Assembly (NCBI GenBank): GCA_019744975.1
Contig: JAIETP010000014.1
Coordinates: forward strand, 186,001-250,000
DNA from: Burkholderiales bacterium
GTDB lineage: Bacteria > Pseudomonadota > Gammaproteobacteria > Burkholderiales > SG8-41
Direction of reading: 5' to 3'
Length of the DNA stretch: 64,000 bases
Position 1 is the first letter of the stretch, and each line of letters starts with the position of its first letter. A program made the translations under genes and the position numbers. The notes below the pieces were generated by a model. It was given only the letters and a program-made list of their open reading frames with translations, did not search any database and was not told where the DNA came from. Shown in pieces: positions 43,453 through 55,253 of the stretch.

Positions 43453-44535
43453 ATGCGCCTGCCTTCCGAACAACTCGCGAGCCACCTCGCGCGGGACCTC
43501 AAACCGCTGTACACGGTATTCGGCAACGAACCCCTGCTCGCACTCGAGGCCAGCGACCGCATCCGCGCCAAGGCGCGCGCCGAAGGTTACACCGAGCGCG
43601 AAGTGCTGACGGTCGATTCCGGCTTCAAATGGAACCAGCTGGCGCTCGCCGGCAATTCACAATCGCTGTTCGCCTCGCGCAAGCTGCTGGAACTGCGCAT
43701 CCCCACCGGAAAACCCGGCAAGGAAGGCGGTGAAGCACTGCAAAAATACTGCGAGTCGCTGCCGCCGGACACCATCACCCTGATTTACGTCTCCGAGCTC
43801 GACTGGCGTGGCCAGAAGGCGGCCTGGTTCGAAGCGCTGGAACGCAGCGGCGTTGCGGTTGAAGCCAAAGCGGTATTGCGCCGCGCCCTGCCGCAATGGA
43901 TCGCCGGCCGATTGAAGGAACAGCAGCAGGACGCCGATGCCGCAACTTTGGATTTCATCGCCGATCGCGTCGAAGGTAATTTGATGGCGGCGCATCAGGA
44001 AGTGCAAAAACTGGCACTGCTGTTCCCTGCCGGCCCGATCAGCTTTGATCAGGTCAACGCCTCGGTGCTGGACGTGGCGCGTTACGACGTGTTCAACCTC
44101 GGTGAAATCATGCTCGAAGGCGATCCGCTGCGCGTCGCCCGCGTATTGGACGGTCTGCAGGGCGAAGGCACGGCAGCACCCCTGGTGCTGTGGGCCTTCA
44201 CCGAAGAAATCCGCGCCATCGGCAAAGTCCTCGCCGGCGTCAACACCGGCAAACCGGCATCGATGATGCTGCGCGAAGCCCGCATCTGGGGCCCGTCACA
44301 CCAGAGCGCGATGCAGAACAACCTCAAACGTTTCACGCTGGGACAGGTCACCGAAGCCCTGCGCCACGCCGCGGTCATCGACCGCATGGTCAAGGGTCTG
44401 GTGCGTGGCGACACCTGGAATGAACTGCTGCAGCTTGCGTTGCGGTTTGCGCGGAATAACCCTGGCACCGTTAAGGCGCAACCTGGAAGACGGGTTGTGC
44501 CTGCGGCGTTTGCAGCGCACCCCGCACTGTTTTAG
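43453..44535 (+). CDS. holA: DNA polymerase III subunit delta
   Basis: This 360-residue clamp-loader subunit has the N-terminal LYTVFGNEPLLALEASDRIR segment, TLIYVSELDWRGQK, and the C-terminal helical collar with ADRVEGNLMAAHQEVQKLALL and DVARYDVFNLGEIMLEGD. It opens the beta clamp for loading. Length is typical. The C-terminal Arg/Ala tail runs to within two bases of convergent higA. Confidence 0.93.
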   Translation: MRLPSEQLASHLARDLKPLYTVFGNEPLLALEASDRIRAKARAEGYTEREVLTVDSGFKWNQLALAGNSQSLFASRKLLELRIPTGKPGKEGGEALQKYCESLPPDTITLIYVSELDWRGQKAAWFEALERSGVAVEAKAVLRRALPQWIAGRLKEQQQDADAATLDFIADRVEGNLMAAHQEVQKLALLFPAGPISFDQVNASVLDVARYDVFNLGEIMLEGDPLRVARVLDGLQGEGTAAPLVLWAFTEEIRAIGKVLAGVNTGKPASMMLREARIWGPSHQSAMQNNLKRFTLGQVTEALRHAAVIDRMVKGLVRGDTWNELLQLALRFARNNPGTVKAQPGRRVVPAAFAAHPALF

Positions 44536-44537
44536 TT

Positions 44538-44843
44538 TCAGCCTTCGCTCGCGTGCATCCGCACGCGCGGCTCCACCTTGAGCCAGGTCGTGCGTTTCGC
44601 CACACGCAAATCGTAATCAGCTTGCAGGCCCAGCCAGGTTTCCGGGGAAACGCGGAAGTACTTGCCCAGCCGTAGCGCGGTGTCGGCCGTGATCGAACGT
44701 TTGCCGTTGACGATATCGCTGATGCGATTGGGCGGCACTGCGATCTCGCGCGCCAGCGCATTGATGCTCACTCCCAGTGGCTTCATGAATTCCTCGTACA
44801 AAATCTCTCCCGGCGGAATCGGGTCAAGCTGTTTGGCTGCCAT
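44538..44843 (-). CDS. higA: HigA-family antitoxin
   Basis: This 101-residue protein has PIPPGEILYEEFMKPLGVSINALAREIAVPPNRISDIVNGKRSITADTALRLGKYF-type sequence, an XRE helix-turn-helix (about 25-75) of the HigA/VapI type. It would neutralise HigB and repress the pair through DNA binding. ATG 44843 lies eight bases after the higB stop, and toxin-first order is normal for higBA. The pair lies between holA and proA, which are usually adjacent. Confidence 0.9.
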   Translation of the reverse strand: MAAKQLDPIPPGEILYEEFMKPLGVSINALAREIAVPPNRISDIVNGKRSITADTALRLGKYFRVSPETWLGLQADYDLRVAKRTTWLKVEPRVRMHASEG

Positions 44844-44851
44844 GGCATCTC

Positions 44852-45133
44852 CTATGCGTGGTAATCCACGATTTCGACCTCGTAAGCATGTCCATCCGAC
44901 CAGCGGAAACAGATTCGCCACTGGTCGTTGATGCGAATGCTGTGCTGGCCCTTGCGATCGCCCTTGAGCGCCTCCAGCCGGTTACCGGGCGGCACCATCA
45001 GATCCCGAAGCACACGCGCCTGGGCAAGGTATAAAAGCTTGCGGCGGGCCTGTCGCTCAATGGCCCTGAAGCGGACCACCTGCCGGTCGTTGAACAGCGC
45101 TTCCGTTTCAGTCGAGCGAAAGGATTTGATCAC
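44852..45133 (-). CDS. higB: HigB-family mRNA interferase toxin
   Basis: This 93-residue RelE-fold toxin begins MIKSFRSTETEALFNDRQV and has the HigB core ARRKLLYLAQARVLRDLMVPPGNRLE and HSIRINDQWRICFRW. It would cut mRNA on the ribosome. The start codon is GTG (45133), chosen because it gives the family N-terminus. A palindromic operator candidate lies immediately upstream. The length and key Arg/Lys positions look intact. Confidence 0.9.
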   Translation of the reverse strand: MIKSFRSTETEALFNDRQVVRFRAIERQARRKLLYLAQARVLRDLMVPPGNRLEALKGDRKGQHSIRINDQWRICFRWSDGHAYEVEIVDYHA

Positions 45134-45274: not shown

Positions 45275-46531
45275 ATGGATGTCCAAACCTACATGCTCGG
45301 CATCGGCAAAGCCGCCCGCGCCGCATCGCGCGCGATGGCGGTCGCCGACAGCCATGCCAAAAACACCGCGCTGACCGCGATGGCGACCGCGATCGAACAC
45401 GCGGCGAAGGTGCTGCTGCACGAAAACGCGCGCGACCTTGAAGCTGCAAAAGTAAAAAACCTCGACGCTGCCGCCATTGACCGGCTGACGCTGACCCCGG
45501 CGCGCATCGCCGCGATGGCCGACGGCCTGCGCCAGATTGCAGCACTCCCCGATCCGGTCGGCGAGATCAGCGGTCTCAAGTATCGGCCCACCGGCATCCA
45601 GGTCGGGCAGATGCGTGTGCCGCTGGGTGTGGTCGGCATCATTTATGAGTCGCGGCCGAACGTGACCGCGGACGCGGCCGGGCTGTGCCTCAAATCCGGC
45701 AATGCGGCGATCCTGCGCGGCGGTTCGGAAGCGCTGCATTCGAATCAGGCGATTGCCGCCTGCGTACACGCGGGCCTCAAGGCCGCCGGCCTGCCGGAAA
45801 CCGCGGTGCAGGTGATAGCAACCACCGACCGCGCTGCCGTCGGCGAGTTGATCACCATGCACGAGTACGTCGACATCATCGTGCCGCGCGGCGGCAAGGG
45901 TTTGATCGAGCGGCTGATGCAGGAATCGCGCATCCCGATGATCAAGCACCTGCACGGCGTCTGCCATGTCTACATCGACGATGCAGCCGATTTCGACAAG
46001 GCGCTGCGCATCGCAGACAACGCAAAAACCCAGCGCCTCGGCACCTGCAACACCATGGAAACGCTGCTGGTGGCGCGCGGCATTGCCGACAAGATCCTGC
46101 CGCCGCTGTGCAAAATCTACGCCGACAAGAAGATTGAGCTGCGTGGCGATGACGCGGCGCGCAGGATCGTACCGGGCATGAAAGCCGCGACCGAAGACGA
46201 CTGGTACACCGAATATCTTGACGCGATATTGTCCATTCGCATCGTCGACGGGCTCGACGCGGCCATCGACCACATCACGCGTTACGGTTCGCAGCATACC
46301 GATGCCATCGTCACCGAAAACATCACGCGTGCACGGCGTTTCCTGCGCGAAGTCGATTCGAGTTCGGTGATGGTCAATGCATCAACGCGTTTTGCCGACG
46401 GTTATGAATACGGCCTCGGCGCTGAGATCGGCATTTCCACCGACAAGCTGCACGCGCGTGGTCCGGTGGGACTCGAAGGCCTGACCTCATTGAAATACGT
46501 GGTGATTGGCGACGGCCACATTCGCGTCTAG
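45275..46531 (+). CDS. proA: Gamma-glutamyl phosphate reductase
   Basis: This 418-residue aldehyde-dehydrogenase-fold enzyme reduces gamma-glutamyl phosphate in proline synthesis. It shows [19 protein letters not shown], the nucleotide-binding [13 protein letters not shown] and the catalytic Cys in [13 protein letters not shown], and ends with the family [14 protein letters not shown] segment. Length is typical. It is normally followed by nadD in betaproteobacteria; here the Wadjet-like operon starts 66 bases downstream. Confidence 0.96.
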
Positions 46532-46597: not shown

Positions 46598-47890
46598 ATG
46601 GACAACAGCAAAACCGATCACAACGAAGACCTGCCGCTCGATCAATACCTTGCGCATGGTGTGCGCGAAAGTGATGTGCAAGCGCTTGTGCCGCTAAAGC
46701 GTTCGGGTGCGATGTTGAACGCCTTCATCATGGTATTTCGTGGCGGTGAAGCCGACGTGCTGATACGCCTGCTGGTAATGCGCGAAATCGGCAATCGGCC
46801 CGATGCGCCGCGCTGGAGCCCTCAAGAACTCGCACAACATTTTTCCTATCTCGATGCCACCAAACTCAACACGGTTCTGGGACGCCTGAAAGATTTTGGT
46901 TTGCTTTTGTGGGATCCGGAAGACCGCACGTATCAGTTAAGTGGTGCGGCACGTGTGGCGCTTTCGGCACTAGCCAATGTGCTGGAGCTCCCAGCCGGTG
47001 ACGATGCTGATCTCACCTATATTACCTCGCAGGTCGCTGCGGGCCAGGCGATGGGGCGACCTTCGCTGGAGGCGCTCAATCTGCTGCTCACCAAATATCG
47101 CGAACTGCAAAAAGAATTTGGGGATGCCGTCGAAAGCGGCTCGGAATTCCGCATTCGCCAGGCCGGCACAAAATTCAGCGCGGTCGAGTCCGCCATCGAG
47201 AAAGGCACCGAGATCATCCGCTCCCTGTTAAAGGGCGGCGAACTCGAAGACGCCATGTACCGCAACGCGCAGGCCATTGGCCAAGCACAAAGCCGCCTGC
47301 TGCGAATGCAGGCCACGTTTCAGCGCAACCTGCACCAGCTTGAACTGCAAAGCGTGGCACTTGCCAATAGCGGCTTATCATCGTCGGACATATTGCAATG
47401 GCTGCGCACGCTCGATCAGGAACACCTTGCTGCACTCGGCCAAAATACCTTTGGCGGCATGCTGTCCCTGCCTTTCGCCATGAGCGATTTGATGCTCGAT
47501 GTGGCTGAGTACGAATTGCTCGAACGCGAACGCGCAGCGCAGGAAAAAACCGCCTTGCCGCCGCCCTGCGATGCGCCCGATACCACGGAAGTATCCAACG
47601 ACCGTTTCGCCGCACTGGATCGCTATGTCGATCAACTCGCGCAGCTTGCCGCGCCAACGTCGCTGGTCGATGCCGTGGTCAGCGGTGGTTACGCGCTTTC
47701 GGCTTACCGGCTATCGCTGCTGTCGCTGATTGGCGATGCGGAATCCACCGAAATGCGCGGACGCATCGCGGATTTGGCGCGTCTGCCGTTGCGGGTGAGC
47801 CTTTCTGGCGATTACGAGATCGTGGCCCGCGAAGAAGTGGCGGAAGTAAGCTGTGGTGTGATCACCCCCATCGAAGAGACCAATCGATGA
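46598..47890 (+). CDS. jetA: Wadjet-like JetA/MksF (kleisin-like) subunit
   Basis: This 430-residue protein opens a four-gene operon with MukE-, SMC- and TOPRIM-like partners. A winged-helix region (about 65-130: WSPQELAQHFSYLDATKLNTVLGRLKDFGLLLW, then DRTYQLSGAARVALSAL) is followed by a long helical section (about 155-270) as in MukF-type kleisins, and a C-terminal Val-rich winged-helix-like part. It is expected to bridge the heads of the SMC protein. It overlaps jetB by four bases. Base use looks slightly less GC-rich than the flanks by eye. No clear Shine-Dalgarno is seen before ATG 46598. The name rests on operon architecture more than on sequence identity. Confidence 0.75.
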   Translation: MDNSKTDHNEDLPLDQYLAHGVRESDVQALVPLKRSGAMLNAFIMVFRGGEADVLIRLLVMREIGNRPDAPRWSPQELAQHFSYLDATKLNTVLGRLKDFGLLLWDPEDRTYQLSGAARVALSALANVLELPAGDDADLTYITSQVAAGQAMGRPSLEALNLLLTKYRELQKEFGDAVESGSEFRIRQAGTKFSAVESAIEKGTEIIRSLLKGGELEDAMYRNAQAIGQAQSRLLRMQATFQRNLHQLELQSVALANSGLSSSDILQWLRTLDQEHLAALGQNTFGGMLSLPFAMSDLMLDVAEYELLERERAAQEKTALPPPCDAPDTTEVSNDRFAALDRYVDQLAQLAAPTSLVDAVVSGGYALSAYRLSLLSLIGDAESTEMRGRIADLARLPLRVSLSGDYEIVAREEVAEVSCGVITPIEETNR

Positions 47891-48540
47891 CCGACGATGC
47901 CCAGGTATTGATCGCACGTCTCATTGCCGAACGCTGGATTCGGCGCGCCGAACCATTAGCGCGTCGTGCGCTGGTGGATGAAGAATTTCGCGAGGAAGTC
48001 ACGCGTCGCCTGGCCGCTTGTGGATTGCGCCTGCTCGACAACCCATACGCCACGCATATCGCGTTGGGGCTGGAGTCCGTTGCTGAAGAACCCGTGCTCG
48101 CACGCAATGGGCAATGGCTGTCAAATAATCTCGCACTGCCGCGGGATTGCGTGGCATTGCTGGTAGTGTTGTGGGCGTTGCTGATTTTACCCAAGCGCGA
48201 ACGACAAATCTCGCGCCGTGACAGCGCTGATACGCAGCAAAACGACATGTTCGGGCTGGAAAAACCCATCCCCACCGGCGGTGATGTCGAAGGCAGTCTG
48301 CCGGAACGCACCTTGCTCGCGGATTTCGGCAAACAACTAGGCGGTAAAACACGCATCGGTTTTAACCTCGGCATACTGTCGCGTCACGGCTTTATCGAGC
48401 GGCATCTGAGCGTCATTCGTGAAGGGCCGCTGCTCGATCTGGCACTTGATCACGGCGTGCTTGCTCCACGGATACTTGACGGCGCCCTGGCGGAGTTACT
48501 CGCCACGCGCGCCGCCAAGATTGCCATTAAAGAAGAATAA
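47887..48540 (+). CDS. jetB: Wadjet-like JetB/MksE subunit
   Basis: This 217-residue protein has an all-helical start (VLIARLIAERWIRRAEPLARRALVDEEFREEVTRRL), a small beta segment (CGLRLLDNPYATHIAL) and a C-terminal winged-helix-like part (LLADFGKQLGGKTRIGFNLGILSRHGFIERH). The size and layout match MukE/JetB (DUF4194-like) subunits, which bind the kleisin. ATG 47887 overlaps the jetA stop. There are five bases before jetC. The assignment is by size, fold-like pattern and position. Confidence 0.72.
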   Translation: MTDDAQVLIARLIAERWIRRAEPLARRALVDEEFREEVTRRLAACGLRLLDNPYATHIALGLESVAEEPVLARNGQWLSNNLALPRDCVALLVVLWALLILPKRERQISRRDSADTQQNDMFGLEKPIPTGGDVEGSLPERTLLADFGKQLGGKTRIGFNLGILSRHGFIERHLSVIREGPLLDLALDHGVLAPRILDGALAELLATRAAKIAIKEE

Positions 48541-48545
48541 CCTCG

Positions 48546-51353
48546 ATGTTTCATCTCAAAAGCATCGAGCTTGTGCATTGGGATTACTGGCAGCGCTTTC
48601 GCCAGACTCTCGACGCCAGTATCGTCGCCATTGTCGGCCCGAACGGCTCGGGCAAGACCACCTTGCTTGACGCACTGCGTACGCTGTTTGCGCTGCAATG
48701 CGCGGGGAAACGCGATTACAAGCGTTACGTGCGGCATTCCGGCGAGTCTTTTGCGTGGCTGCGCGCAGTGGTGGATAACCGGCGCATCGGTAACGCCCGG
48801 CATCCGTTTTTTCCGTTGCTCGAAGATGAAGTGACACTGGTGTGCCGCATCCGAAAACAAGGCGGCGATTGGCAACGCCAGTATTTGATCGCGCCCGGCG
48901 ATGCGCCGATTGATGAGGCCATGGAACGCTCGCCCGACTGGCTCGGCGTGCGTGATTACGAACGGCGCCTGGCAAACGGCGGATTGAGTGCCGCCATCGC
49001 ACAAGTGCTTTCTCTCGAACAGGGTGAAACCGACCGCTTGTGCGAATACACACCCAAGGCACTGCTCGATCTGGTGTTTCACGTGTTCGGCGACAAACGC
49101 GTACTGGACGATTACACGCAAGCGCGCGCCGATCAGCGCGACAGCGAATCCGAGCTCGACAAACTCGACGGCGATCTCAAGCGCACTGAAAACGAATACG
49201 AAACATTTATTCAGCGCGCCAATCGTTATCAGGAATGGCGCGATCTAAAAAATGAAGAGAATCAATTACTTGCAGAAATCCGCCCGCGTGTGGAGCTGGC
49301 TGAATTACGGCTTGCGATAAAAAACGCGGAAGCACGGCTTGAAACCCTGCGCCGCCAGTCAGCGGATCATCAAATTCAGATTGCGCACGAAGAACGGCGT
49401 CTCGCACGCAACGCCGATGCGCTCGCCGTAAACGCCGGCGCACAGAAAAATGCCGCGCGCGCACACGAAGATGCTGCTACACGCCACAACGCCGCGCTGA
49501 TTAACGTGACCAGTACGCGCAATCTGCTTGCCGAGCGCGACAAGCTGCGCGCGCAAGCCGCCGCTGCCGGAAACGACAGCGCCGAGGCGGCCACGCGACT
49601 GGAGCGTGATCGCCCCCGGCTGGCGGAAATCAAAACGCAACGCACAGTGCTCACGCAGCAACACGCCGAGACGAGCGCGCGCCTGGCCGCGCTGCGCGGA
49701 GGCAAGAGCACGCCGGAACACTTTGTCACCAAACTGCGCGGTGCGCTGGATGAAGCCGGCATCCCCCATGTGATGCTCACTGAAATGGTGGAAGTCAGTG
49801 ATGCAGGCTGGCAGACTGCGGTGGAAGCGTTGCTCGCGCCGTACCGTCATCTGGTCGTGCTCAAACGGGCGCGTGACCGCGATAAGGCATGGCGTATCGG
49901 CGAACAGTTGCAGTATCGCGGATTCGTCACGCCCGAGGCAGAGCCACCTCCTGCAGCAAACGCAGGCAGTGTACTGGAAGTGCTGCGTTTATCGAGTGAG
50001 GCGCCAGCGTGGCTGACCACGTGGCTTAATCGCATACAACGCGTCAAAGACACTGCCACTGGCACAAAACTCAACGCAGAACAGGACTGGATAACCCGCG
50101 CGGGTTATCACCGTGAGCGGCGCGGCGCACGGCATCGCGGCGTGAGCGCACATGAATTCCGGTTTGGTGAAGCAGCTCGGCGCGCACAGATGAAAGCACT
50201 GGAAGACGATGTTCCGCGTTTTATTGCGGAACTCGAAAAATGTTCAGCCGAAGAAAAGTCCCTGCTTGCCGCCATCAGTCGCGATCAAGCCGTGGTGTCG
50301 GGCGTGGATGCAGCCAACTGGCTGGCCAGCCGCGCCGAGGAATTTGCCGCAGCGCAAACGCGCTTAGTCGATGAACAAGCCACAGAGCAAGGCGCTGGCG
50401 CAGCGCAAAAAACAGCCATAGAAGCCGAAGGTCAATTGCGTATGGAGCACGGAAAACTGGGTGCGGAAAAGCAGCAAATCGAAACCGCGTTGCGCGATGC
50501 ACGTAGTGGGCTGACCGTGGCGCAGCAACACATAAATATGCAAGCCGACGAGCAGCAAAAACGTGCCGAACGTGATGCGCAATTGCGCAGCGGCATGCCT
50601 GCTGCATGGCTTGATGCGGATGCACTGGAACAATTACTCGCCGCGCATAACTCGCTGCACAACGTGGATGCCCGTATCGCGCAAATCCAGCGCCAACTGC
50701 AACAAGGGCAATGGGAGACCGACGAGACCGTGATCGTGCGCCGCGACAAGCTGGCCGACGATGTGCGCGGCAAACGTGAACGTGTGGAAGCCGCGCGCAA
50801 TCAATGCGAGCGCGCAAAAAAAATCACCGAGGGTGCGCGCGGGGAGTATCTGAATGTGCTGCGAGCCACGGTGCGCGGTTACGGGCGGCATCTGAAAGAT
50901 CTGGGCTTGAAGGCCGGCATCGAAGTCGACTACGAAATGCCACACCTGGCCAACGACGACACCGCACTGGCGCAGGCCGGGTTGAACGTAAAATTCAACT
51001 TCGATCAAAAAGGCATGATCGGCATGAACGACGGCGAGGCCTCCGGCGGGCAGCAGGTGATGAAATCGCTGATTTTGCTGATCGCGCTGACGATGGAGAA
51101 CGATCGCCCCGGCGGATTCGTGTTCATCGACGAGCCATTCGCACATCTGGATGTGATGAATATCGACCGCGTTGCAGCATTTCTGCGTGCAACCCGGGCG
51201 CAGTATCTGATTACCACACCCAGCACACACAACATCAATGTATTCAGTCCCGTGCAACTCACGCTGGTAACACAGAAGAAACGCCCCGGTGAACGCTGGG
51301 CCCCGCCAGTGGCCATGCTGCGCAAAGATGAATCCGCCGCCAACACCGGTTGA
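48546..51353 (+). CDS. jetC: Wadjet-like JetC/MksB, SMC-family ATPase
   Basis: This 935-residue protein has an N-terminal half-ATPase with Walker A GPNGSGKT (31-38) and a Q-loop-like SLEQGETDRL (about 156-165). Coiled coil covers about 190-395, a hinge-like globular region about 400-540 (GIPHVMLTEMVEVSDAGWQT), and returning coiled coil about 545-790. The C-terminal head has the signature EASGGQQVMKS (about 831-841), Walker B FVFIDEPF (858-865) and D-loop AHLD. This is full SMC architecture but short for MukB/JetC proteins, implying shorter arms. It should extrude DNA loops with JetA and JetB. It overlaps jetD by 26 bases. Confidence 0.88.
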   Translation: MFHLKSIELVHWDYWQRFRQTLDASIVAIVGPNGSGKTTLLDALRTLFALQCAGKRDYKRYVRHSGESFAWLRAVVDNRRIGNARHPFFPLLEDEVTLVCRIRKQGGDWQRQYLIAPGDAPIDEAMERSPDWLGVRDYERRLANGGLSAAIAQVLSLEQGETDRLCEYTPKALLDLVFHVFGDKRVLDDYTQARADQRDSESELDKLDGDLKRTENEYETFIQRANRYQEWRDLKNEENQLLAEIRPRVELAELRLAIKNAEARLETLRRQSADHQIQIAHEERRLARNADALAVNAGAQKNAARAHEDAATRHNAALINVTSTRNLLAERDKLRAQAAAAGNDSAEAATRLERDRPRLAEIKTQRTVLTQQHAETSARLAALRGGKSTPEHFVTKLRGALDEAGIPHVMLTEMVEVSDAGWQTAVEALLAPYRHLVVLKRARDRDKAWRIGEQLQYRGFVTPEAEPPPAANAGSVLEVLRLSSEAPAWLTTWLNRIQRVKDTATGTKLNAEQDWITRAGYHRERRGARHRGVSAHEFRFGEAARRAQMKALEDDVPRFIAELEKCSAEEKSLLAAISRDQAVVSGVDAANWLASRAEEFAAAQTRLVDEQATEQGAGAAQKTAIEAEGQLRMEHGKLGAEKQQIETALRDARSGLTVAQQHINMQADEQQKRAERDAQLRSGMPAAWLDADALEQLLAAHNSLHNVDARIAQIQRQLQQGQWETDETVIVRRDKLADDVRGKRERVEAARNQCERAKKITEGARGEYLNVLRATVRGYGRHLKDLGLKAGIEVDYEMPHLANDDTALAQAGLNVKFNFDQKGMIGMNDGEASGGQQVMKSLILLIALTMENDRPGGFVFIDEPFAHLDVMNIDRVAAFLRATRAQYLITTPSTHNINVFSPVQLTLVTQKKRPGERWAPPVAMLRKDESAANTG

Positions 51354-52551
51354 CTGGCCCGCGCCCGGCGCGGATGGGATCAGTGTGCGCCTGCTGGATG
51401 TTGGTGCAAAAACCACGCTGCGCAGGCGGCGTCTGCGACGCGCGCTCAATGCCAATATGCACGAACTCGCAACCTGGCCTGCCGCGTGGCGCGACCTTCT
51501 GAGAGAGTGGCTGGATGGCGCATCCAAACGCCGTTGGGATACCTTGATCAGCCGTGCTGGTAACGCAAGATTCAATATTGCACACGAGTTACTGCGTGCG
51601 CTGCTGGGTGCCGGGCTGATTGAAACGGATGAGTCTCGCGAACAAGGTCAGTGGAAAACGCGCCAGGTAACGTTTATTAATCCAGCGGCGATGCGCAGCG
51701 CCTTGGGCATGCCGGATACCGCCGGCCTGCGGGAACAACTCGCGCATGAAATTGCCTCGCCGCCGGTCGATAACCGGCTCACGCCGCTGTGGAATGATCT
51801 GGCAGCGTATCCGCCCTCACGCGGCATTACCCGGTGCGCATTGCTGCGAAAGCTCGATACGTGGCTTGCCGAAAACCGCTTCGGCACCCGCCGCGACTTT
51901 GCTCTGTTTGCACGAGGCGGAACCAAAGCCGTCAGTAGCGCCGAGTGGCAGTGGCTGGAAACATTGCCGGATTTTGATGCGTTCGGCATTGAGCGTCATG
52001 CGCCTGCGCTGTGGTTGCGTGCCCCGCTAACGTTGTGTTTCGGTGGGAAAACCATCGATCTATCGGTAATTCCCGACATGATCGGCCTTTCATCCGCTAC
52101 GTTCGATGCACTTGATGGGATCAAGGGGAATATAGCCTGCTGGCGCTTGGTCGAGAATCGCACCAGCTTCGAGCGAGCAGCGCGTGAACACGGCGCAGTC
52201 GACGGCGTAATCTGGCTACCGGGATTTGCGCCAAGTTGGTGGAAAAAATGCGTGCGCCGAATCCTTCAGCATAAACCTGGGCCAGCCGAGATCGCGTGCG
52301 ACCCTGATCCCGCCGGCATCAACATCGCGCTTGACGCCGGTGCTGTTTGGCAGTCCTGTGGACTTGCTTGGGCGCCGTGGAAAATGGACGCGCACGCATT
52401 GATGCAGCTTGATGCGCGCTCGCCCTTAACCAGCCATGATAAAGTCCTGCTCGAGCAATTGTCAGCGCGAAAACTTCCTGCGCCATTGCACGATCTTGCG
52501 GACTGGATGCAAGCACACGATGAGAAGGGCGAACAGGAGGGTTATCTGTAG
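51328..52551 (+). CDS. jetD: Wadjet-like JetD, TOPRIM nuclease subunit
   Basis: This 407-residue protein has a winged-helix-like N-terminal half (GNARFNIAHELLRALLGAGLIE at about 79-100) and a C-terminal TOPRIM domain with Glu276 in LVENRTSFE and the DxD motif ACDPDPAGINIA (D325, D327). These acidic residues bind Mg in topoisomerase VI-like and JetD nucleases. JetD proteins cut plasmid DNA held by the SMC complex. ATG 51328 lies inside the jetC end and gives a normal length. The DPDPAG motif differs from the GDLD-type of many JetD proteins, so I do not assign a Wadjet subtype. Confidence 0.8.
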   Translation: MNPPPTPVDWPAPGADGISVRLLDVGAKTTLRRRRLRRALNANMHELATWPAAWRDLLREWLDGASKRRWDTLISRAGNARFNIAHELLRALLGAGLIETDESREQGQWKTRQVTFINPAAMRSALGMPDTAGLREQLAHEIASPPVDNRLTPLWNDLAAYPPSRGITRCALLRKLDTWLAENRFGTRRDFALFARGGTKAVSSAEWQWLETLPDFDAFGIERHAPALWLRAPLTLCFGGKTIDLSVIPDMIGLSSATFDALDGIKGNIACWRLVENRTSFERAAREHGAVDGVIWLPGFAPSWWKKCVRRILQHKPGPAEIACDPDPAGINIALDAGAVWQSCGLAWAPWKMDAHALMQLDARSPLTSHDKVLLEQLSARKLPAPLHDLADWMQAHDEKGEQEGYL

Positions 52552-52587
52552 CAAGCCCCGGGCACGACTCCATTAAATTTTAGGTAA

Positions 52588-53373
52588 TTAGGGCGAAACG
52601 TAACCAAAATAGATGTTTAAGAACTGCTTAAAAACGTTCTCTTTTCGGTGATTAAAGCGGTATTCGATTTCTTTCAGATACATCGGGAAGTGATACTTCG
52701 AGACGCCCCGGTAGTTGTAGAGAATGTGCTTAGCATAGCTCCAGAATCCCTCAATGCCGTTGATGTGATTTTTGGTGCGCTTGTCGACGAAAGATTTATG
52801 GTGACTGATCGTATGGTGTTTACCAAACCGCTTGAGCGATCGATACCCGCGGAAGGCGTCGGTGTAGTAGACCGATCCCTTCTTGGTGCGCGCCTTGATA
52901 TGGTTCATCAGCGTCTCGGCCGAGACCGACTCGACGACTTTGGTGTAGACCCTGCCTTCCCTCTCCAGCAGACCGAAAACGACACTTTTGCCGGCAGCGC
53001 CACGACCTCGCTTGCCTTTGCGCCGGCCGCCGAAATAGGCCTCATCCAGCTCGATCTCGCCTTTGAGTCGGCCGCCCTCCAGCTCACACAGATGAAACAA
53101 AGCCTCGCGCAGATGCTGGTAGACGCGAGTAACAACTTTGATATCCAGCCCCAGATCGACTGCGAGCCGATAAGCCGGCTGAAGTTGGTAGAACCCTTGC
53201 AAAATCGCAATCTCCCGGCGCAGCCTGGACAAGCTCTTGGTCTTGCCGCAACCGCGACATTTGACGTAACCGCGTGCCGTACGCAGCACCTTGAACGAAC
53301 CACAGAAAATGCACTTGCGACCCCTCAAAAAGTTGGCCGCACAACTAAAATGACTGCTTTTCCCAATAACCAT
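52588..53373 (-). CDS. IS1595-family (ISXO2-like) transposase
   Basis: This 261-residue transposase has an N-terminal zinc ribbon (CIFCGSFK ... CRGCGK) and the DDE-type catalytic core: Asp in ELDEAYFGGRRKGKRG, Asp in YYTDAFRGYRSL and the NxxE-like HINGIEGFWSYAK. These are signatures of the ISXO2-like DDE_Tnp_IS1595 group. The stop codon lies inside the left terminal repeat, and the start codon lies inside a perfect hairpin near the right end. No frameshift or internal stop is seen, so the element may be active. Confidence 0.95.
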   Translation of the reverse strand: MVIGKSSHFSCAANFLRGRKCIFCGSFKVLRTARGYVKCRGCGKTKSLSRLRREIAILQGFYQLQPAYRLAVDLGLDIKVVTRVYQHLREALFHLCELEGGRLKGEIELDEAYFGGRRKGKRGRGAAGKSVVFGLLEREGRVYTKVVESVSAETLMNHIKARTKKGSVYYTDAFRGYRSLKRFGKHHTISHHKSFVDKRTKNHINGIEGFWSYAKHILYNYRGVSKYHFPMYLKEIEYRFNHRKENVFKQFLNIYFGYVSP

Positions 53374-53399
53374 AGGTACTTACCTTATACCTATGGTTA
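53367..53399 (-). promoter_or_regulatory. Hairpin covering the transposase start codon
   Basis: TAACCATAGGTA (53367-53378) and TACCTATGGTTA (53388-53399) form a perfect 12-bp stem with a 9-base loop. The transposase ATG lies in the stem and the AAGG ribosome site in the loop, so transcripts entering from outside would hide the start. Confidence 0.7.
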
Positions 53400-53450
53400 C
53401 GAAACGCCCTAATTACCAAATTTTAACTATCTGTTTTTATTGGATTTTTA

Positions 53451-55253
53451 ATGTCGAAGCTGATTGAAGTCAAAGTCCCGGATATCGGAGACTACAAAAA
53501 CATTCCTGTGATCGAAGTGCTGGTCAAAGCCGGCGATACCGTCAACAAGGAAGACCCGCTGGTCACGCTGGAATCCGACAAGGCGACGATGGACATCCCC
53601 GCGCCGTCCAGCGGCGTGGTCAAGGCGCTGAGCCTGAAGCCCGGCGACAAGGTGTCCAAAGGCACGCTGATCCTGACGCTGGAAGAAGGTGCCGGCACTG
53701 CCGCAGCACCGGCAGCGAAACCGGCTGCAGCAGCGGCTCCTGCTCCGGCCACCGCATCTGCCCCTGCAAAACCTGCACCCGCAACTGCGCCCGCTGCAGC
53801 CGCTGCAGCCAAAACCGATATCTCCGGCATCAAAGCCGACTTCCACGCTGAAGTCGTGGTGCTCGGCGCCGGACCCGGCGGTTACACCGCGGCCTTCCGC
53901 GCCGCCGACCTCGGCAAAAAAGTGGTGCTGATCGAACGTTATCCGACGCTGGGCGGTGTCTGCCTCAACGTCGGCTGCATCCCGTCAAAAGCGCTGCTGC
54001 ACATGGCGAAAGTCATCACCGAAGCCGATGAAGCCAGTCACGCCGGCATCAGTTTCGGCAAACCGGTCATCGACATCGACAAGCTGCGCAGCTGGAAAGA
54101 CGGCGTGCTCGGCAAGCTGACCAAGGGCCTCGGCGGCATGGCCAAACAGCGCAAGGTGCAGGTCGTCACCGGTCGCGGCGAATTTGCCTCGGCCAACACC
54201 ATTCGTGTCGAAACCGCGGACGGCGTCAAAACCGTTGCCTTCGAGAACTGCATCATCGCCGCCGGCTCGTCGGTGGCGCGCATCCCCGGTTTTCCCTACG
54301 ACGATCCGCGCATCATCGATTCCACCGGTGCGCTGAAACTCGCCGAAGTGCCGAAACGCCTGCTGGTCATCGGCGGTGGCATCATCGGCCTTGAAATGGC
54401 CACCGTGTACGATGCGCTGGGCAGCAAGATCACCGTCGTCGAACTGATGGACGCGCTGATTCCGGGAGCCGACAAGGACATCGTGCGCGTACTCTCGAAA
54501 CGCATCGAGAAACGTTACGAAAAAATCTTGCTCAAAACCAAGGTCGCGAAAATCGAAGCGCAGAAGGCCGGATTGAAAGTGACTTTCGAGGGCACGGATG
54601 GGACGACAACCACCGACACCTTTGATGCCGCACTGATGGCCGTCGGCCGTCGCCCCAACGGCCGCGAGATCAAGGCCGAAGCGGCAGGCGTCACGGTCAA
54701 CGAACGCGGTTACATCCCCGCCGACAAACAGCAGCGCACCAACGTCCCGCATATCTACGCCATCGGTGACATCTGCGGAGAACCCATGCTCGCGCACAAG
54801 GCCACGCACGAAGCCAAGATCGCCGCCGAAGTCATCGCCGGCCACAAGGCTTTCTTTGATGCGCGCACCATTCCTTCGGTGGCCTACACCGATCCCGAGA
54901 TTGCATGGATGGGCCTGACCGAAACCCAGGCGCAGGCACAGGGCATCGAATACGAAAAGGCTTCCTTCCCCTGGGCCGCCAGCGGCCGCGCACTCGCCAC
55001 CGGCCGCGACGACGGCATGACCAAACTGCTGCTCGACAAACAATCGCGCCGCGTACTCGGCGCCGCCATCGTCGGCGTCAATGCCGGCGAACTGATCGCC
55101 GAAGCGGTGCTGGCACTGGAAATGGGCGCCGACGCCACCGACCTCAGCCTGACCATTCATCCGCATCCGACCTTGTCGGAAACTTTGTTCTTTGCCGCGG
55201 AAATCGCGGAAGGATCGATTACCGATCTGTATATGCCGAAGAAGCCCGCGTAG
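53451..55253 (+). CDS. lpdA: Dihydrolipoamide dehydrogenase with N-terminal lipoyl domain
   Basis: This 600-residue protein has a lipoyl domain (1-80) with the lipoylated Lys in LESDKATMDIP, an Ala/Pro linker (about 82-125) and an E3 flavoprotein (128-600) with GAGPGGYTAAFRA, the redox disulfide GGVCLNVGCIPSKAL, the NAD site IGGGIIGLEMATVY and the C-terminal His-Glu pair in HPHPTLSE. This fused form is the E3 of pyruvate dehydrogenase in many betaproteobacteria, usually after aceE-aceF. Here those genes are not upstream; the IS element ends 33 bases before the start. Its promoter is therefore unclear. Confidence 0.95.
   Translation: MSKLIEVKVPDIGDYKNIPVIEVLVKAGDTVNKEDPLVTLESDKATMDIPAPSSGVVKALSLKPGDKVSKGTLILTLEEGAGTAAAPAAKPAAAAAPAPATASAPAKPAPATAPAAAAAAKTDISGIKADFHAEVVVLGAGPGGYTAAFRAADLGKKVVLIERYPTLGGVCLNVGCIPSKALLHMAKVITEADEASHAGISFGKPVIDIDKLRSWKDGVLGKLTKGLGGMAKQRKVQVVTGRGEFASANTIRVETADGVKTVAFENCIIAAGSSVARIPGFPYDDPRIIDSTGALKLAEVPKRLLVIGGGIIGLEMATVYDALGSKITVVELMDALIPGADKDIVRVLSKRIEKRYEKILLKTKVAKIEAQKAGLKVTFEGTDGTTTTDTFDAALMAVGRRPNGREIKAEAAGVTVNERGYIPADKQQRTNVPHIYAIGDICGEPMLAHKATHEAKIAAEVIAGHKAFFDARTIPSVAYTDPEIAWMGLTETQAQAQGIEYEKASFPWAASGRALATGRDDGMTKLLLDKQSRRVLGAAIVGVNAGELIAEAVLALEMGADATDLSLTIHPHPTLSETLFFAAEIAEGSITDLYMPKKPA

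What the first reader, a model, noticed from the sequence alone, without database searches (positions are those of the whole stretch)
46598..52551. Four-gene Wadjet-like SMC/nuclease defence operon with compact SMC
Four tightly overlapping genes encode, in order, a winged-helix kleisin-like protein, a MukE-sized protein, a full SMC ATPase with Walker A, hinge-like centre, SGGQQ signature and Walker B, and a TOPRIM protein. This is the jetABCD logic of plasmid-restricting Wadjet systems. The SMC is only 935 residues, so its coiled coils are shorter than in MukB-like JetC. By length and motifs it does not clearly match the types I know, so it may be a divergent subtype.
Basis: partly seen in the sequence, partly recalled or inferred. 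Interest (0 to 1): 0.78.

Follow-up and report, generated by a model that had tools for sequence, protein, structure and literature searches.

The report
Divergent compact Wadjet-like plasmid-cutting operon
Four neighbouring genes look like a DNA-reeling machine armed with a DNA-cutting subunit that would destroy small circular DNA, from a branch that the defence-gene catalogue used here misses and in which many relatives have no cutting subunit.

Summary
A (430 aa), B (217), C (SMC, 935) and D (TOPRIM, 407 from its better start) form one tight operon. PADLOC, Pfam and NCBIfam give no relevant hit for A or B. C and D match Wadjet type I weakly (JetC1 6e-21, JetD1 4e-16), whereas an ordinary type I operon in the same genome scores 2e-77 or better in all four genes. 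Predicted folds make B a JetB-like tandem winged-helix (KITE) protein and A a MukF-like kleisin (weaker). D aligns with type I JetD over most of its length, TOPRIM acids kept. NCBIfam's Mks condensin models do not match. Of the 80 closest SMC relatives kept, 22 have D beside the SMC. C and D trees of D-bearing members agree (19 of 23 splits, no strong conflict), so if D was ancestral it was lost about a dozen times; some Ds have altered catalytic motifs or lie elsewhere. In the window's genus the operon fills a proA-lpd gap that is empty in 12 of the 13 other genomes fetched. Best reading: a divergent compact Wadjet lineage near type I, in which some members became nuclease-free SMC complexes. 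Function is untested.

The parts
46598..47890 (+). gene A, JetA/MukF-like kleisin (430 aa): N-terminal winged helix, long helices, C-terminal winged helix with beta hairpin
   Evidence: ORF; AlphaFold model pLDDT 78.5, pTM 0.43; best PDB match 9gm7_C (MukBEF, MukF-sized chain) E 6.3e-4; no profile hit
47887..48540 (+). gene B, JetB/MukE-like KITE protein (217 aa), two winged-helix domains
   Evidence: ORF; AlphaFold model pLDDT 71.3, pTM 0.47; best PDB matches JetABC chains 8as8_C 9.2e-6 and 8dk1_F 3.3e-5
48546..51353 (+). gene C, compact SMC ATPase (935 aa)
   Evidence: SGGQQ and Walker B invariant and Walker A invariant but for one nearly invariant position in 23 rows; hinge homologous to type I JetC, hhalign 99.8%
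48636..48659 (+). SMC Walker A GPNGSGKT (residues 31-38)
49677..50264 (+). SMC hinge region, about residues 378-573, with the conserved basic stretch RERRGAR (523-529)
   Evidence: blastp to own-genome type I JetC, hhalign, conservation
50712..50723 (+). WETD motif (residues 723-726) before the C-terminal head; T725 in 19 of 20 rows with linked D and 12 of 53 D-less rows; candidate D-contact or activation site
   Evidence: exploratory
51042..51056 (+). SMC signature SGGQQ (residues 833-837)
51120..51137 (+). SMC Walker B VFIDEP (residues 859-864)
51328..52551 (+). gene D, JetD-like TOPRIM nuclease (407 aa)
   Evidence: PADLOC JetD1 3.9e-16; hhalign 98.8% to type I JetD over model columns 77-403; no Pfam hit
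52153..52155 (+). TOPRIM glutamate E276 (VENRTSF)
   Evidence: aligned with IENLTTF of type I JetD
52300..52308 (+). TOPRIM DxD, D325-P-D327
   Evidence: aligned with GDIDEGG of type I JetD
45275..46531 (+). proA-like flank, left border of the slot (gene name by recognition, not by a profile)
53451..55253 (+). lpd-like (dihydrolipoamide dehydrogenase) flank, right border of the slot (gene name by recognition, not by a profile)
52580..53420 (-). IS1595-family insertion between D and lpd (27-nt inverted ends, 85% complementary); not part of the operon

Best explanation
The operon encodes a divergent, compact Wadjet-like complex. A (kleisin), B (KITE) and C (SMC) form an ATP-driven loop-extruding motor. 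D is a TOPRIM endonuclease presumed to be held inactive until the motor has reeled in a whole small circle, and then cuts it, so that small circular DNA such as plasmids is destroyed and the chromosome is spared. Shown here by computation: gene architecture, intact ATPase and TOPRIM motifs, homology of D and of the C hinge to Wadjet type I, agreement of the C and D trees, purifying selection, and a patchy, fixed slot in the genome. Inferred from characterised Wadjets: loop extrusion, size sensing, cutting, and the plasmid as target. The lineage does not match NCBIfam's Mks condensin models, and relatives without D are presumed to be nuclease-free SMC complexes.
For: Operon with conserved ATPase motifs. 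D homologous to JetD with the acids kept. C hinge homologous to type I JetC. B fold JetB-like, A fold MukF-like. C and D trees share 19 of 23 splits with 0 strong conflicts in 26 rows. B and D occur in the same 7 of 74 genomes of the family. Slot empty in 12 of 13 other genomes of the genus fetched, of 20; dS 0.93-1.54 in the operon against 0.35 and 0.47 in the flanks for window versus G631.
Against: No experiment. A has no sequence-level link to any kleisin and only a marginal fold match (E 6e-4, TM about 0.15). B's global superpositions are poor (TM 0.35-0.42), and hhalign links neither A nor B to type I, although the two type I JetB groups do find each other (94.5%) and L118 MksE finds one of them (65.6%). 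58 of the 80 relatives kept lack D beside the SMC, so the motor's main role in the clade may not be defence. Over pairs of four window-family loci the SMC is on average more, not less, conserved than neighbouring ORFs (77.6 vs 72.6%), against the faster divergence seen in the one congener pair. L011/L025 (one locus fetched twice), a close D-bearing relative, has CDPHPAG, the second acid of DxD changed.
Confidence: 0.72

Rival explanations
1. It is simply a Wadjet type I system that the 2023 profiles fail to reach, a new member and not a distinct lineage.
For: Best Wadjet hits of C and D are JetC1 and JetD1. PADLOC type I already lumps JetA families that hhalign does not link to each other here (DUF5716-type vs DUF3375-type, 0.8%).
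Against: A and B hit no PADLOC model at E<=1, while the own-genome type I operon and two others hit strongly; B is not linked to either type I JetB group although these find each other; SMC 216 aa shorter than the own-genome JetC; long stem between the clade and three type I SMCs in the C tree.
Confidence: 0.3
2. A condensin-like chromosome organiser in which D acts on the host's own DNA, for example as a topoisomerase-like or decatenation aid, and not as a plasmid killer.
For: 58 of 80 relatives kept have ABC or C without a D beside it. D-less operons are mostly as conserved as, or more conserved than, their flanking ORFs within genera. The JetD TOPRIM resembles that of topoisomerase VI (PMC10586767, section read).
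Against: In the window's family the operon is patchy (7 of 74) and had D in all 7; it fills a slot that is empty in congeners and differs more than its flanks in one congener pair. I did not test D for a catalytic tyrosine.
Confidence: 0.15
3. Target is phage or other invading DNA rather than plasmids.
For: Patchy occurrence as in defence genes.
Against: Characterised Wadjets act on smaller circular DNA and spare linear DNA (PMC10586767, passages read).
Confidence: 0.08

Closest known systems
Wadjet type I (JetABCD, DUF5716/DUF4194 group), e.g. the second operon of this same genome (G000:C28, L019) and, by structure, PA14 and E. coli JetABC
   Same: Gene order kleisin-KITE-SMC-TOPRIM; homologous JetD over most of its length with the same catalytic acids; homologous hinge; JetB-like fold
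   Different: A and B not recognisable by sequence; SMC 935 vs 1151 aa with shorter spans between Walker A, hinge and signature; 58 of 80 relatives kept lack D beside the SMC
MksBEF condensin (NCBIfam NF040857-NF040859; that these models rest on Pseudomonas is my recollection)
   Same: Three-subunit kleisin/KITE/SMC complex with an SMC of similar size (926-position model); L118 has no D model hit in the 12 kb fetched
   Different: Window A and B, and A, B, C of L030 (D-less) and L097 (with D), show no match to these models; L118 matches all three, though below their curated cut-offs; no significant profile link of C to the L118 SMC (7%)
Wadjet types II and III
   Same: Nuclease-armed SMC logic
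   Different: No JetA2/A3 or JetB2/B3 hit for A or B. A 2025 paper says Wadjet-II and -III lack the hinge channel and tend to have longer coiled coils, a few Wadjet-III excepted (PMC12647877, passages); here the SMC is short and the hinge is homologous to type I
MukBEF
   Same: A's best fold matches are MukF-sized MukBEF chains; MukE is among B's fold matches
   Different: Much shorter SMC (MukB length recalled), Pfam MukB N-terminal domain only 13 bits (cut-off 23), and a nuclease gene is present

Membership tests
Wadjet (as a kind) | Operon of kleisin, KITE, SMC and TOPRIM nuclease | tested here: met
   A is the weakest (fold match E 6e-4)
Wadjet (as a kind) | JetD with TOPRIM E and DxD plus N-terminal part | tested here: met
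   hhalign 98.8% over model columns 77-403, motifs aligned; D was not modelled
Wadjet (as a kind) | ATP-dependent restriction of circular plasmids | not testable with these tools
   needs experiment
Wadjet type I | JetA1 and JetB1 profiles | tested here: not met
   no hit at E<=1; own-genome control hits 2.6e-174 and 2.4e-77
Wadjet type I | JetC1 and JetD1 profiles over the full length | tested here: inconclusive
   JetC1 6.4e-21, best stretch 188-726; JetD1 4.2e-16, C-terminal half only
Wadjet types II/III | JetA2/A3 and JetB2/B3 profiles | tested here: not met
   9 of the 16 D rows scanned, the window's not among them, also show a weak JetD2 hit, best 3.8e-8
MksBEF condensin | NCBIfam NF040857-NF040859 models | tested here: not met
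   no hit for window A and B (E<=1), none among the best 25 shown of 78 for C; none for L030 and L097 A, B, C at 1e-5, while L118 hits 5e-47, 3e-22, 5e-102 (below the curated cut-offs)
MksBEF condensin | Direct comparison with P. aeruginosa PAO1 proteins | not tested
   no named P. aeruginosa chromosome was reachable after the single genome-contig scan
MukBEF | MukB N-terminal domain, MukE and MukF profiles | tested here: not met
   PF04310 13.2 bits, cut-off 23; A and B without Pfam hits at E<=1; PF21980 (MksE) absent in the own genome

The most novel reading that the evidence does not exclude
This clade is a natural series of conversions between a plasmid-cutting SMC nuclease and a nuclease-free SMC complex: an ancestral JetD-armed machine lost its nuclease about a dozen times, with surviving intermediates (D with altered catalytic acids, D moved to another locus), while the motor stayed under strong selection, probably for chromosome work. 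One SMC motif near the C-terminal head (WETD, T725 with R733) relaxes when D is gone and may mark where the motor triggers the nuclease.
Probability: 0.45. Interest if true: 0.75.

Novelty: new variant of a known kind. Interest (0 to 1): 0.6.

Why it matters
A defence lineage whose kleisin and KITE genes the PADLOC, Pfam and NCBIfam models used here do not see could be counted as absent in beta- and gammaproteobacteria. The idea that chromosome-organising complexes such as MukBEF and MksBEF arose from Wadjets is so far called a tempting speculation (PMC10586767, section read). This clade offers related versions of one machine with D, with altered D, with displaced D and without D, which makes that question directly testable, and it points to a candidate residue for how the motor and the nuclease communicate.

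Tried and rejected
Viral or plasmid-borne origin: a viral-contig scan with D alone found nothing (a single protein reaches close relatives only) and the phages collection held no B at 1e-5; plasmids held two partial Variovorax C matches beside IS1071.

A replacement effector in D-less operons: I listed the ORFs within 1.5 kb downstream of C in all 58 D-less loci and printed those of seven. Six ORFs from six of these loci were run against Pfam: RlmL-like methyltransferase (two loci), redoxin, elongation factor G, RibD and a nucleotidyltransferase, none nuclease-like; several lie hundreds of bases away, one on the other strand. The rest were not typed, and ORF picks are noisy in GC-rich DNA, so a replacement is not excluded elsewhere.

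Sequence homology of A and B by hhalign: A 0.1-0.6%, B 0.2-3.8%. For A the control of type I JetA group against group was equally silent (0.8%), so that says little. For B the control was not silent (type I group against group 94.5%, type I against L118 MksE 65.6%), so B is truly remote by sequence. D against the second type I group (one sequence) gave 0.1%. Flaws of the reference sets: one JetA row (L130) was read out of frame and reduced to a 31-aa piece, and L128 was taken from a guessed start.

Filing it under MksBEF because many relatives lack D: not borne out by NCBIfam.

D-linked residues in A and B: none of 430 and 217 columns passed the filter; 2 of 935 did in C. The independent-pair test for T725 is underpowered (mean 4.0 of 6 pairs the same way, 0 opposite, median p 0.125), although T725 ranks first of 122 scanned columns. 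L096 keeps D but has E at 725, 12 of 53 D-less rows keep T, and the three Chromobacterium with unlinked D have Q.

'Operon evolves faster than its surroundings' as a general rule: holds for window versus G631 but not in the group averages.

Rows dropped: L084 (no room downstream) from loss counts and the residue scan; L041, L047, L067, L072, L076 (taken as near copies) and L064 (short C) from the tree; L023 and L011 from the D tree; L043, L048, L055 and the three unlinked rows from the residue scan.
Full report
OBSERVATION. Four + strand genes lie head to tail: A 46598-47890, B 47887-48540, C 48546-51353 and D, whose conserved start is ATG 51328, ending at 52551. A and B overlap by 4 bp, B and C are 5 bp apart, C and D overlap by 26 bp. 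C has Walker A, SGGQQ and Walker B, invariant in 23 rows but for one nearly invariant Walker A position. D has the TOPRIM acids.

PROFILES. Against PADLOC at E<=1, A and B give no hit; C gives JetC1 6.4e-21 (best stretch 188-726; second of 86 families after mad3, 4.4e-22) and D gives JetD1 4.2e-16 (C-terminal half). Pfam at E<=1: A, B and D nothing, C SMC_N and other ATPase families. NCBIfam at E<=1: A and D nothing, B only a chance-level hit to a lantibiotic family (0.14), C general SMC and ATPase models. Positive control: the window's own genome holds a second, ordinary type I operon on contig C28 (L019), whose four proteins hit JetA1 2.6e-174, JetB1 2.4e-77, JetC1 0 and JetD1 1.4e-142. Two further type I operons also hit their models strongly (L121 A, B, C and L123 A, B, C, D). 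The gap is therefore specific to the window's operon. NCBIfam's Mks condensin models hit neither window A nor B, were not among the 25 best families shown of 78 for C, and hit none of A, B, C of two relatives, L030 and L097, at 1e-5, whereas L118, a three-ORF operon of 413/190/946 aa, hits all three at 5e-47, 3e-22 and 5e-102, below their curated cut-offs.

STRUCTURE AND REMOTE HOMOLOGY. AlphaFold of B (pLDDT 71.3, pTM 0.47) shows two winged-helix domains; the three PDB matches under 0.001 are chains of JetABC structures from E. coli (9.2e-6) and PA14 (3.3e-5, 3.5e-5) that by length are JetB, followed by Nse1/3, ScpB and MukE entries. A (pLDDT 78.5, pTM 0.43) has an N-terminal winged helix, long helices and a C-terminal winged helix; the only match under 0.001 is a 440-aa chain of MukBEF (6.3e-4), MukF by size, with further MukF entries below it and unrelated methyltransferases and winged-helix regulators between them. 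TM-scores are low in both, so these rest on local similarity. hhalign: D against type I JetD 98.8%, columns 77-403, with E276, D325/D327 and the C-terminal QE aligned with their counterparts; C against type I JetC 99.8%, strongest over the hinge; A and B not significant. For A this says little, because two JetA groups both filed under type I score 0.8% against each other. For B it does say something: the two type I JetB groups find each other at 94.5%, so B is remote by sequence and its place rests on fold and operon position.

COMPACTNESS. Walker A to hinge motif is 388 residues against 467 in the own-genome type I JetC, hinge motif to signature 414 against 513. A 2025 paper reports that Wadjet-II, Wadjet-III and MukBEF lack the hinge channel and, a few Wadjet-III excepted, tend to have longer coiled coils, and that the Wadjet-I hinge lets the motor bypass obstacles (PMC12647877; passages, section 7). 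The window's SMC is short and has a hinge homologous to type I with a conserved basic stretch (RERRGAR), which fits that trade-off; that it has a channel is my inference.

RELATIVES. One scan of genome contigs with C found 413 pattern matches, 355 relatives and kept the best 80, by their titles from beta- and gammaproteobacteria. A was found in 75, B in 77 (one partial), C in 80 (one short; median 936 aa) and D in 22 (one cut by the contig end). Of the 58 loci without D one had too little room to see it. I searched the whole genomes of 50 of the 58 for D: 3 had it at another place, all Chromobacterium. In samples of the class the family is rare: B in 2 of 369 genomes and A in 4 of 369, own genome included, one of the four in fragments and one marginal at 2.6e-4. 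The 80 are those most like the window, so the proportions are not those of the whole family.

LOSS OF THE NUCLEASE. On a quick LG+G4 tree of 76 in-clade SMCs and 3 type I outgroup rows, linked D needs 10 changes, at least 8 forced by well-supported branches. For 26 D-bearing rows (the 3 unlinked included) the C and D trees share 19 of 23 splits with no strong conflict, so D has travelled with C and absence is best read as loss: 15-16 losses on the resolved tree, 12-13 after collapsing weak branches, if D was ancestral. Transfer of whole operons would also keep the trees congruent, and the tree has long branches that meet. Possible intermediates: E to Q in L043; E to Q and DxD to DxS in L048 and L055; DxD to DxA in two of the three unlinked Chromobacterium Ds; DPH for DPD in L011/L025. 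Whether these are inactive is inference. D-less A, B and C are mostly at least as conserved within genera as their neighbours (C 93 vs flank 86 in Chromobacterium, 96 vs 78 in Janthinobacterium; Lysobacter A, 80 vs 82, is an exception). Aquitalea, which has D, shows the same (C 97.5 vs 90.5), and so, less strongly, do four window-family loci (C 77.6, D 69.5, flank 72.6), so conservation does not separate armed from disarmed; the flank figures may include antisense ORFs. Downstream of C in six D-less loci, Pfam found ordinary enzymes and an elongation factor, no nuclease.

GENOMIC SLOT. B and D occur in the same 7 of 74 genomes of the window's family, 2 of 21 in its genus (one B gene, in G680, has an internal stop). 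I fetched the region after proA in 13 of the 20 other genomes of the genus: in 12 lpd follows proA directly, and in G631 the ABCD operon sits there. L020, L022, L025 and two Nitrosospira records (L026, L027) have it in the same slot. Between window and G631 the flanks are 96% identical (dS 0.35 and 0.47) and the operon genes 73-87% (dS 0.93-1.54), whereas against L022 and L020 flanks and operon are similarly distant. One pair is thin evidence, but it fits exchange of the cassette at a fixed spot by recombination in the flanks. In the window an IS1595-family element lies between D and lpd; no other locus has a match to it.

A POSSIBLE TRIGGER SITE. Of 1582 columns in A, B and C, two pass a filter of >=95% in rows with linked D and <=45% in D-less rows: T725 and R733 of C, eight residues apart. 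T725 ranks first of 122 conserved columns by independent pairs but the test is underpowered (median p 0.125). Exploratory.

MECHANISM. JetABCD is known to cleave smaller circular DNA, probably after extrusion, and to spare linear DNA (PMC10586767, passages). I infer the same for this operon. Nothing here tests it.

NOVELTY. Searches of the held library for Wadjet and Mks types, subtypes and variants and for JetD loss listed no paper that, by title, start of abstract or the passages I saw, describes this clade; the listings were capped, most subscription papers are not held, and the 2011 MksBEF paper is not held. I rate it a new variant of a known kind.

Noticed in passing
G000:C28, locus L019 3256-10053: The same genome carries a second, ordinary Wadjet type I operon (JetA 499, JetB 226, JetC 1151, JetD 389 aa), preceded by a WYL-domain protein.
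   Followed up: yes
window 52580-53420: IS1595-family transposase with 27-nt inverted ends between D and lpd; the other loci compared have no match to it.
   Followed up: partly
window 44538-45133: HigB-like toxin and helix-turn-helix protein pair on the minus strand between the gene ending at 44535 and proA, upstream of the operon slot.
   Followed up: partly
L136 10604-11851, L137 8790-10487, L138 7252-8598: Three Chromobacterium genomes keep a D gene away from their ABC operon; no A, B or C match lies in the 18 kb fetched around it.
   Followed up: yes
L102 and L192: Variovorax plasmids carry a C fragment plus a D-like gene behind an IS1071 transposase and beside xseAB; the L102 D-like ORF matches the D model at 7e-85.
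   Followed up: partly
L130: A Vibrio nigripulchritudo plasmid has an annotated Wadjet operon whose SMC part is interrupted by an IS3-family transposase gene; described only.
   Followed up: no
NCBIfam NF040857 and NF040859: The model called MksB has 412 positions and hits the kleisin-sized protein of L118, the one called MksF has 926 and hits its SMC-sized protein; the names look swapped.
   Followed up: no
L124 (G227): A divergent A gene in several frames (four pieces) with a partial D match; looks like a decayed operon; described only.
   Followed up: no
L020, L022: Record titles name Bordetella parapertussis, but these are MAGs that share the window family's proA-ABCD-lpd locus; the labels look doubtful.
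   Followed up: no
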